Shown: positions 3,002-4,914 of the stretch, piece by piece
How the letters are laid out: every line of letters starts with the position of its first letter
Position numbering within the stretch: the stretch's first letter is position 1
From: Aphanocapsa sp. GSE-SYN-MK-11-07L
GTDB taxonomy: Bacteria > Cyanobacteriota > Cyanobacteriia > Thermosynechococcales > Thermosynechococcaceae
Length of the DNA stretch: 49,064 bases
Assembly (NCBI GenBank): GCA_019359715.1
Contig: JAHHGS010000096.1
Location: forward strand, 1 to 49,064
Direction of reading: 5' to 3'
Made by a program: the position numbers and the translations under genes
Notes under the pieces: generated by a model
Databases searched by the model: none
The model's input: the letters and a program-made list of their open reading frames with translations, nothing else
What the model was told of the DNA's origin: nothing

Positions 3002-3184
3002 AAAACTGGCGCAGCAAAATGAGCGACAGGCGATCGCATTCTCTCTGACACAATGAAAAATAATCTTATTTGTTTCAACAATGTTTGCGATGACTAAGTC
3101 TCCCCAAAAGGGAATCGCTTACAATGCGGTGCGATATGGGTTAGCAAGGGCACCAAGGAATTGGCAGGATTCCAATTTTCATAA

Positions 3185-3279
3185 ATATTAACCCGGCAAT
3201 GTAAATTTTTATCCAAGATCACAAGTTTTCAATTGTTATCGTCTAAAAAATGCAAGATCAATGATTGCCGGGTTAATAT
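3185..3279. repeat. 16-bp perfect inverted repeat enclosing 63 bp
   Basis: Arms 3185-3200 and 3264-3279 (atattaacccggcaat and its exact complement) enclose an AT-rich 63-bp centre. No reading frame fits inside. The whole 95-bp unit looks like a miniature inverted-repeat element, but I see no convincing target duplication longer than 2 bp. It sits immediately upstream of a gene remnant, consistent with a role in its truncation. Confidence 0.5.
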
Positions 3280-3347
3280 ATGCGCGAAGGGAAGTATGAC
3301 GTAATGTGGGGGGCGGATACTTCGCTGCAAATTGAGAATGAATTTGA

Positions 3348-4643
3348 GTGATTCGTTGTGGGGCATGGGTTTCGTTCCTCAACCCAGCCTACCGTTACTA
3401 TACTTTCGCATTTTATGTCTCTAACGATGCAAGTGTGAATAAGAATGTCTCTGGTCAGCCCTGGTATGACATTAACAATCTCAAAAGTATTGACTGGCTT
3501 GAAAATGAGACAGGTTATGACCTGTTTTCAAACATTCCCGACTTAACAGAGGTTGTAATTGAATCAAGGCCTGCAAATTTGATTCGAGAATGGTTAGATA
3601 CTACCTTGTCTTCCCCTCTTTTAGCTGCTAGTTCTGATTCAACAGTTATCATTACGGACACTTCCATTCGGCATAGTAGTACGGCAGAAAATACATCCAT
3701 TTTGGAGCCAGTACTCGACATCCACTCCACTGGTTTTCCTCAAAGTGGTCCCGGTCAGATTGACGTTCTCCATCACTGCCTCTTGCAATTCAGCTCTGGA
3801 CAGATCAGCATCAGTCAGATCGGCATTAGTGAAAATAGATTGAGAGAGATTAGCTCCCATGAGCAAAACACGTCTAAGGATGGCATTGGTCAAATCAGAT
3901 TCAGCGATCACAGTTCCAATAAACAAGGAGTCAGTCAAGTCAGCTCCAATCAAGGAACAGTGAATAATGGAGCCGCTGAAATTGGCATCCGTGAGAACAG
4001 CCCCATCCAAACAATCGCCTCTAAGTCGGACTCCGGCGAAATTTCTCTCACCATCACTGTAACGCCTGAGCATATCTCTGATAGTCATGTCAGTGAATTT
4101 CATGTTGGACTTCCTTCCTCCAATCTCATCGCTCTAAATTCTACTGCCGTCAGCCTGTGGCAAAGCTTCCACCCCAACTTTGATTTAACCCTCCAGGTCA
4201 CCGACCTGCCCAGCGGTCAACTCGCCGAAGCCCAACTCACCAGCTTTGCCTCCAACGGCACCCCCAACGCTGGTACCCTCCTGCTCGACTTTAACGGCAA
4301 CGACCTCGGCTGGTTCATCGACTCTACCCCCTGGGAAAACAGCGAATTCACCCCCTTCGACTGCTCTCAGGGGACAGAACCAACCGCATTCCGCGCCACC
4401 TCCAGCTCCCCCGCCAGCGGCCACTACGACCTGCTGACCACAATTCTCCACGAGCTGGGGCACCTGGCCGGTTTAATCCAAGGCAACCCCGCCTACGACA
4501 GCCGCGTCAAACTCGTCAATGGTACCCCCACCTTTATCGGCAATGGCTTCAGCGCTACCCTCACTGTCGATCGTAGCCACCTCGACCCCCGGCTGCACCC
4601 CTACAACCTGACGAACACCACACGTAAAAGTCAGGGCAAGTAG
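3348..4643 (+). pseudogene. C-terminal remnant of a large secreted nuclease/protease-like protein
   Basis: A single open frame of 431 codons from a GTG, with no signal peptide or N-terminal domain. Residues about 7-75 resemble the tail of DNA/RNA non-specific endonucleases (SIDWLENETGYDLFSNIPD). Residues about 150-245 carry loose Gln-Ile-Ser/Gly repeats. Residues about 265-430 resemble a cyanobacterial metallopeptidase-like end, with DLPSGQLAEAQLTSF, GWFIDSTPWENSEF and the zinc-site motif HELGH at about 376-380. From memory of large cyanobacterial secreted proteins, this domain order looks like the end of such a protein, so I read it as 5'-truncated. Base use becomes C-rich after 4140, unlike the 5' part. 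The middle overlaps an antisense gene. It could still be expressed as a short protein. Confidence 0.55.
3639..4103 (-). CDS. Pentapeptide-repeat protein, nested antisense
   Basis: A 154-residue protein built mainly of A(D/N)LXX-type pentapeptides, for example GADLTDS, SDLTNAIL, GANLSQSIF, NADLTDADL and VNLTGTTL, predicted to form a right-handed quadrilateral beta-helix. The N-terminal lead-in (MLRRYSDGERNFAGV) is characteristic of real pentapeptide proteins rather than of a chance frame. A purine-rich ribosome binding site (gaggaaggaag) lies 6 bases before the ATG at 4101-4103. The gene lies wholly inside the plus-strand frame 3348-4643 and shares its codon register. The last 30 residues lose the repeat. 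Its target is unknown. Confidence 0.7.
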   Translation of the reverse strand: MKFTDMTIRDMLRRYSDGERNFAGVRLRGDCLDGAVLTDANFSGSIIHCSLIGADLTDSLFIGTVIAESDLTNAILRRVLLMGANLSQSIFTNADLTDADLSRAELQEAVMENVNLTGTTLRKTSGVDVEYWLQNGCIFCRTTMPNGSVRNDNC

Positions 4644-4914
4644 ATCGGTGCGCTGTCGTTCTGAATTAGCGACACTGGGCGATCGCAGTTTGGGTTACTT
4701 TAGGAAAATCGCTTTTAGTTATGAGTGCGATCGTAGCCAATCACTCAAGTCCGGTAGTGCAGAAAAATCAAGTAGCGCCTCGCCTAACTTTTTTAGTTGA
4801 GCCAGGGACAGGGGGCGGATTTGGGCTTCCGTCTCAGGAGCGATCGCCAGGAATTTGTAGGTGTTATCAAAGGACATGGGCAAAGCTAGCGAAGGTCGAG
4901 TAGAGCTTGGGGGA

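What the first reader, a model, noticed from the sequence alone, without database searches (positions are those of the whole stretch)
3348..4643. In-register sense/antisense coding: pentapeptide gene inside a nuclease/protease remnant
The plus strand is open for 431 codons and its two ends clearly encode known-type domains. The minus strand at 3639-4103 encodes a convincing pentapeptide-repeat protein with its own ribosome binding site. Codon boundaries coincide, so a Q-I-G/S repeat on one strand is an A-D/N-L repeat on the other. For both frames to stay open, the minus gene must avoid TTA, CTA and TCA codons for 154 codons. I recall related large cyanobacterial proteins with Q-I-S/G repeats between the same two domains; if so, the arrangement may be conserved and these 'repeats' may be antisense images of a pentapeptide gene.
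Basis: partly seen in the sequence, partly recalled or inferred. Interest (0 to 1): 0.7.

Follow-up and report, generated by a model that had tools for sequence, protein, structure and literature searches.

The report
Immunity-like gene hidden antisense inside nuclease gene
In many cyanobacteria a complete pentapeptide-repeat gene lies backwards, codon on codon, inside the gene for a giant nuclease-bearing protein, and evolution has kept both strands readable; it looks like the nuclease's own protective partner, and the stretch in this window is a decayed copy in which the backward gene is still intact.

Summary
The plus ORF (3348-4643) is a decayed piece of giant cyanobacterial proteins (open frames up to 10,437 codons): tail of an Endonuclease_NS domain, Q-I-S/G repeats, metalloprotease domain. 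The minus ORF is a complete pentapeptide-repeat protein (Pfam E 3e-22; AlphaFold pLDDT 95). In every homologue with the repeats (38 loci, several orders), the repeat region is the in-register antisense image of a full pentapeptide gene. Codons that would stop the plus frame (TTA, CTA, TCA) occur twice where about 240 are expected; codons giving plus-strand Cys are depleted, while A-ending codons giving Ser are not. Substitutions in the overlap follow the minus gene, and those in the flanks follow the plus gene. Both strands are therefore selected. In three related genomes the same nucleases end the ORF and a separate pentapeptide gene lies 0-200 bp downstream, usually convergent; nuclease and pentapeptide subtypes match across both layouts. 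Best reading: a nuclease and cognate pentapeptide (immunity-like) pair whose second gene is often nested antisense in the first. Overlap and dual selection: about 0.95. Immunity function: about 0.6, untested. Expression was not tested.

The parts
3348..4643 (+). Plus ORF, 431 aa: decayed C-terminal piece of a giant exoprotein (nuclease tail, Q-I-S/G repeat region, metalloprotease domain)
   Evidence: homologous giant open frames of 10437, 8564 and 4970 codons
3348..3401 (+). First 18 codons (VIRCGAWVSFLNPAYRYY), derived from the 3' end of a REP-associated transposase (RAYT)-type repeat, not from the giant gene
   Evidence: the same peptide occurs at other places in the genome (C82, C103, C34, C144); at C34 it follows an intact RAYT-like ORF
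3402..3569 (+). C-terminal tail of a DNA/RNA non-specific endonuclease domain; catalytic RGH motif absent
   Evidence: collinear with the Endonuclease_NS domains of homologues; RGH absent
3639..4103 (-). Complete pentapeptide-repeat gene, 154 aa, in-register antisense to the plus ORF
   Evidence: AlphaFold2 pLDDT 94.9; PDB matches are pentapeptide beta-helices
4110..4121 (-). Shine-Dalgarno-like GGAGGAAGGAAG upstream of the minus ATG
   Evidence: family-wide 22 of 35 minus starts carry such a motif against 14% of background ATGs
4086..4088 (-). Alternative ATG that aligns with the family-conserved start (MT-IRDML-RRY against MT-AEELL-RRY)
3639..4103 (+). Q-I-S/G repeat region of the plus ORF, the antisense image of the pentapeptide gene
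4116..4625 (+). Metalloprotease domain (HELGHLAG), 3' end truncated relative to homologues
   Evidence: homologues; NF038122 hit below cutoff; HExxH

Best explanation
A pentapeptide-repeat gene is encoded in-register on the antisense strand inside the open frame of a giant cyanobacterial exoprotein, directly after its DNA/RNA non-specific endonuclease domain. SHOWN by sequence: the nested layout is conserved; the minus gene is under purifying selection as a pentapeptide protein; the plus strand is under selection to stay open and to avoid particular residues; nuclease subtype and pentapeptide subtype are inherited together; other giants with the same nuclease have the pentapeptide gene as a separate neighbour. 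INFERRED: the pentapeptide protein is an acidic, DNA-shaped beta-helix that binds and neutralises the cognate nuclease, acting as an immunity protein; the exoprotein delivers or displays the nuclease; tandem orphan nuclease and pentapeptide cassettes are exchanged as in polymorphic toxin systems. In nested loci the plus frame reads through the antisense gene into further domains, so the Q-I-S/G repeats are a tolerated linker whose sequence is largely dictated by the other strand. In the window the nuclease is gone, and the pentapeptide ORF survives like an orphan immunity gene.
For: (1) All 38 cyanobacterial loci with the repeat region carry the antisense ORF, with conserved start (EELLxRYAAGERDF) and end (TTMPDGSxRND) motifs. 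(2) Antisense-stop codons: 0 of 5,360 codons in 31 embedded genes against 455 of 6,851 in standalone genes; over all loci 2 found, 241 expected. (3) GCA/ACA (plus Cys) 17/850 against 363/1359, while GGA/CGA/AGA (plus Ser) are enriched, so the selection acts on plus residues. (4) L094/G167 substitutions at plus positions 1,2,3: upstream 72,50,93; overlap 60,33,43; downstream 58,45,84. (5) The only invariant plus residue in the repeat region is the His that is the image of the minus ATG. (6) The nuclease domain precedes the repeats, also in a second module with a different following domain. (7) 18 of 18 nucleases in large ORFs have a pentapeptide gene nested or within about 200 bp; 0 of 25 small NucA-like nucleases do. 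(8) The top 25 nuclease pairs by similarity all have pentapeptide similarity at the 94th percentile or above; Mantel r 0.33, 1 of 2000 permutations. (9) Tandem cassettes. (10) Embedded pentapeptides are more acidic: -5.4 against -2.2 charges per 100 aa.
Against: No expression, translation, binding or toxicity data were available. In nested loci the nuclease is not at the C terminus, unlike classical polymorphic toxins. About one third of the nuclease domains lack an RGH motif. AlphaFold of the plus repeat region failed (pLDDT 37), so nothing is known of its structure. Co-inheritance follows from linkage alone and does not prove cognate binding. The dNN/dSN ratio for the plus strand overlaps that of standalone pentapeptide genes, so plus constraint rests on codon choice, stop avoidance and identity at matched divergence.
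Confidence: 0.65

Rival explanations
1. Only the giant plus gene is real; the minus pentapeptide ORF is a shadow of a repetitive plus coding region.
For: Several public records annotate only the giant. Repetitive coding regions can give long antisense ORFs.
Against: Substitutions in the overlap peak at the minus third position (61,14,24 for L082/G062; minus dNN/dNS 0.17), against plus-like patterns in the flanks. Conserved N- and C-terminal motifs, start codon and ribosome-binding sites. The minus gene stays intact where the plus frame is broken (L101, L102). The same genes occur separately next to the same nucleases.
Confidence: 0.02
2. Only the minus pentapeptide gene is selected; the plus frame is open there by codon bias.
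For: The minus gene dominates the substitution pattern. NCBI annotates only the minus ORF in Nostoc TCL26-01.
Against: Standalone pentapeptide genes of the same genomes carry 5-7 antisense stops per 100 codons; embedded genes carry none in 5,360 codons. Cys, Arg, Tyr and stop images are avoided while A-ending Ser images are favoured. The plus frame continues for thousands of codons on both sides. Plus identity is higher at matched minus identity, 0.35 against 0.25.
Confidence: 0.04
3. Both strands code, but the pentapeptide protein is not an immunity protein: it could be a structural partner, a regulator, or its transcript could act as an antisense RNA on the giant gene.
For: Pentapeptide proteins have varied functions (the review PMC8145042 mentions no immunity role to nucleases). 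Antisense orientation would allow RNA-level regulation.
Against: Strict linkage to the nuclease domain rather than to the protease or other domains, co-inherited subtypes, tandem orphan cassettes, acidity; the orientation is not always antisense (L202, L203).
Confidence: 0.28

Closest known systems
Antisense overlapping (embedded) genes of bacteria, such as nog1, asa and aatS in E. coli (PMC7457138, PMC9927249)
   Same: A protein gene fully contained on the antisense strand of another protein gene.
   Different: [quoted passage not shown] this one encodes a known fold of 120-300 aa, is conserved across cyanobacterial orders, is in strict codon register, and carries codon-level evidence of selection on both strands.
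Pentapeptide repeat proteins (PF00805; HetL, MfpA, AlbG, Qnr)
   Same: Sequence family and predicted right-handed quadrilateral beta-helix; MfpA and AlbG act as DNA mimics (PMC8145042).
   Different: Linked to Endonuclease_NS domains and encoded inside or right after the nuclease gene; below the HetL equivalog cutoff (59.5 against 260 bits).
Polymorphic toxin and contact-dependent inhibition systems (PMC3482391, PMC3150448)
   Same: Large surface or secreted protein with a nuclease, adjacent partner gene, matched subtypes, tandem orphan cassettes.
   Different: The partner is usually on the opposite strand and often nested inside the toxin ORF; the word 'pentapeptide' does not occur in the held text of that survey; neutralisation is untested.
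Anabaena NucA nuclease and NuiA inhibitor (from general knowledge; papers listed)
   Same: A cyanobacterial non-specific endonuclease of the same domain family with a protein inhibitor.
   Different: NuiA is, from general knowledge, not a pentapeptide protein; the small NucA-like genes examined here have no pentapeptide gene adjacent.

Membership tests
Pentapeptide repeat family PF00805 (minus ORF) | Pfam score above gathering cutoff | tested here: met
   78.3 bits against 20.2
Pentapeptide repeat family PF00805 (minus ORF) | Quadrilateral beta-helix fold | tested here: met
   AlphaFold2 pLDDT 94.9; PDB matches are pentapeptide proteins; prediction only
HetL equivalog NF047416 | Score above NCBIfam cutoff | tested here: not met
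   59.5 against 260
Metalloprotease NF038122 (plus ORF, C-terminal part) | Score above NCBIfam cutoff | tested here: not met
   16.9 against 80; HExxH present
Endonuclease_NS PF01223 (giant homologues) | Domain present just before the repeat region | tested here: met
   E 1e-26 to 1e-38 in four modules; in the window only the tail remains
Functional antisense overlapping gene | Purifying selection on the embedded gene beyond the host gene | tested here: met
   minus dNN/dNS 0.17-0.49 in plus-intact pairs, flanks 0.58-1.07
Functional antisense overlapping gene | Selection on the host frame within the overlap | tested here: met
   stop and Cys-image codon avoidance, identity at matched divergence; dNN/dSN alone inconclusive
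Functional antisense overlapping gene | Transcription and translation of both strands | not testable with these tools
   no RNA-seq, ribosome profiling or proteomics available
Polymorphic toxin with immunity gene | Partner gene immediately adjacent to the toxin domain | tested here: met
   18 of 18 nucleases in large ORFs, 0 of 25 small nucleases
Polymorphic toxin with immunity gene | Toxin and partner subtypes co-inherited; orphan cassettes | tested here: met
Polymorphic toxin with immunity gene | Toxin domain at the C terminus | tested here: not met
   met in the separate layout, not met in nested loci, where protease or Ig-like domains follow
Polymorphic toxin with immunity gene | Partner neutralises the toxin | not testable with these tools
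   needs biochemistry

The most novel reading that the evidence does not exclude
A cyanobacterial nuclease effector system in which the immunity protein, a DNA-mimicking pentapeptide beta-helix, is encoded in-register on the antisense strand within the effector's own open frame, so that one stretch of DNA encodes a folded inhibitor on one strand and a linker of the effector protein on the other, conserved across several cyanobacterial orders.
Probability: 0.55. Interest if true: 0.9.

Novelty: new variant of a known kind. Interest (0 to 1): 0.82.

Why it matters
Whether long antisense genes in bacteria are functional is an open question, because most candidates are short, young and lack recognisable folds. 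Here the embedded gene has a known fold, start, ribosome-binding site, separate relatives as controls, and about 40 loci, so selection on each strand can be measured codon by codon. It also shows a systematic blind spot: public records annotate one strand or the other, and annotation rules exclude contained genes (PMC7457138). If the immunity reading holds, it adds pentapeptide proteins as nuclease inhibitors and explains some of the abundant pentapeptide genes of cyanobacteria that have no known function.

Tried and rejected
AlphaFold2 of the plus repeat and protease region gave pLDDT 37: uninformative. The idea that the pentapeptide gene belongs with the protease was dropped, because protease homologues without the nuclease (outgroups L069, L070, L073, L078, L084, L087-L090; cyanobacterial G024, G078) lack both repeats and pentapeptide, and a second nuclease module in G070 has the antisense gene without the protease. 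Simple dNN/dSN for the plus strand was not decisive, because standalone pentapeptide genes give similar values. A single origin of nesting is not supported: on the nuclease tree nested and separate layouts are interleaved, with at least 5 switches forced by well-supported branches; direction unresolved. Literature searches found no description of the arrangement in the held library. Promoter and terminator scan of the window not above chance.

Full report
OBSERVATION. The plus strand is open from 3348 to 4643 and the minus strand from 4103 to 3639, with coinciding codon boundaries. The minus protein is a pentapeptide-repeat protein (PF00805, 2.9e-22), modelled as a complete beta-helix (pLDDT 94.9), and its PDB matches are pentapeptide proteins (HetL, MfpA, AlbG, Qnr, Rfr proteins). 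A good ribosome-binding site precedes the ATG. With same-genome codon use the plus frame would remain open by chance with probability 0.0018.

WHAT THE PLUS ORF IS. Its protease domain occurs in 9 of 386 sampled genomes of the phylum, in open frames of up to 10,437 codons. Wider searches gave about 40 loci and cyanobacterial plasmids. The full arrangement is: large exoprotein, Endonuclease_NS domain (PF01223), Q-I-S/G repeats, metalloprotease, further domains. The window copy has lost the catalytic part of the nuclease and the end of the protease, and its first 18 codons come from a RAYT-type repeat end. The genome has no nuclease match at E 1e-12. It holds further copies at C34, C103 and C144 with an intact antisense pentapeptide ORF, and truncated ones at C147 and C88.

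THE ANTISENSE FRAME IS CONSERVED. In all 38 distinct loci with the repeat region, the in-register minus frame encodes a full pentapeptide protein (mostly 113-250 aa; one 302-aa ORF holds two in tandem) with conserved N-terminal EELLxRYAAGERDF and C-terminal TTMPDGSxRND motifs. The plus motif SSISxQQFFSxHN is the image of that N-terminus, and its invariant His is the image of the minus ATG. Shine-Dalgarno-like motifs precede 22 of 35 minus starts against 14% of background ATGs, Fisher 9e-11. Relatives of the protease in Accumulibacter, Bradyrhizobium, Acidobacteria and Planctomycetes lack both repeats and antisense gene.

BOTH STRANDS ARE SELECTED. Minus: in pairs of embedded genes, changes peak at plus position 1, which is the minus third position, and minus dNN/dNS is 0.17-0.49. 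In the flanks of the same pairs changes peak at plus position 3, and minus dNN/dNS is 0.58-1.07. In L101 and L102 the giant is gone but the minus gene is intact. Plus: 31 embedded genes have 0 antisense-stop codons in 5,360, against 455 in 6,851 in 39 standalone genes (Fisher 1e-107). Counting all control loci, including some that are themselves embedded, the control rate is still 5.3 per 100. Over all loci 2 were seen where 241 are expected. Minus codons whose image is Cys (GCA, ACA) fall from 27% to 2%, and images of Arg and Tyr are also avoided, while A-ending codons whose image is Ser rise; this excludes a simple third-base bias and points to plus residues. At matched minus identity, plus identity is higher in embedded than in standalone genes, 0.35 against 0.25 in the 50-60% class. 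The plus dNN/dSN ratio by itself does not separate embedded from standalone genes.

ANNOTATION. Public records choose one strand. Nostoc TCL26-01 carries the minus ORF as WP_256872023.1 and no gene for the plus frame there; Aulosira, Anabaena, Gloeothece and Stanieria carry the giant and not the minus gene. The review PMC7457138 quotes the NCBI rule that no gene may be completely contained in another.

THE PAIR. The nuclease domain precedes the antisense gene wherever the upstream part is intact, including a second module of the G070 giant that lacks the protease. In three genomes of another genus (G039, G203, G354) the large ORF ends just after the nuclease domain, and a pentapeptide gene with normal codon use starts 0-200 bp downstream: convergent in most, same strand in L202 and L203. 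Tandem arrays of nuclease ORF, pentapeptide, orphan nuclease ORF, pentapeptide occur in L204 and L205. Small NucA-like nucleases lack such neighbours: 18 of 18 against 0 of 25, Fisher 2e-12. Nuclease similarity predicts pentapeptide similarity: Mantel r 0.33, 1 of 2000 permutations; the 25 most similar nuclease pairs all fall in the top 6% of pentapeptide similarity, including pairs with one nested and one separate member. The two layouts are interleaved on the nuclease tree.

MECHANISM. The most likely reading is a nuclease effector with a cognate pentapeptide immunity protein. Steps shown: linkage, co-inheritance, tandem cassettes, fold prediction, acidity. Steps inferred: neutralisation by DNA mimicry, delivery, and retention as orphan immunity in the window genome. 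Nested copies can be explained by read-through of the giant frame into the convergent gene with purging of stops, or the reverse process; the polarity is unresolved.

LIMITS. No expression data; the session's sampling of genomes is partial; control genes are not matched one to one by species; predictions of the plus repeat structure failed. The 31-gene embedded set includes some loci whose plus ORF is shortened outside the overlap.

Noticed in passing
window 3060-3401: Decayed 3' part of a REP-associated tyrosine transposase (RAYT)-like gene and its repeat end just upstream of the plus ORF; several copies in this genome (C34, C103, C144) and in G296 and L063 have a RAYT gene or remnant at the same side, suggesting these elements helped spread or truncate the copies.
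   Followed up: partly
window 4626-4900: The 3' tail after the truncated protease is shared with the C147 copy and ends near a PD-(D/E)XK/DUF4351-like transposase remnant, suggesting a segmental duplication.
   Followed up: no
L056 5119-6027: One giant carries two complete pentapeptide proteins in one continuous antisense frame of about 300 codons; G062 has two antisense genes in tandem.
   Followed up: partly
L204, L205: Tandem arrays of nuclease ORFs alternating with convergent pentapeptide genes, like orphan toxin and immunity cassettes; in L205 a second nuclease ORF overlaps the 5' end of the preceding pentapeptide gene.
   Followed up: partly
L068, L093, L095, L096, L097, L197, L204: About one third of the giant-linked nuclease domains lack the RGH catalytic motif, as if inactivated or diverged, while the pentapeptide partner is kept.
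   Followed up: no
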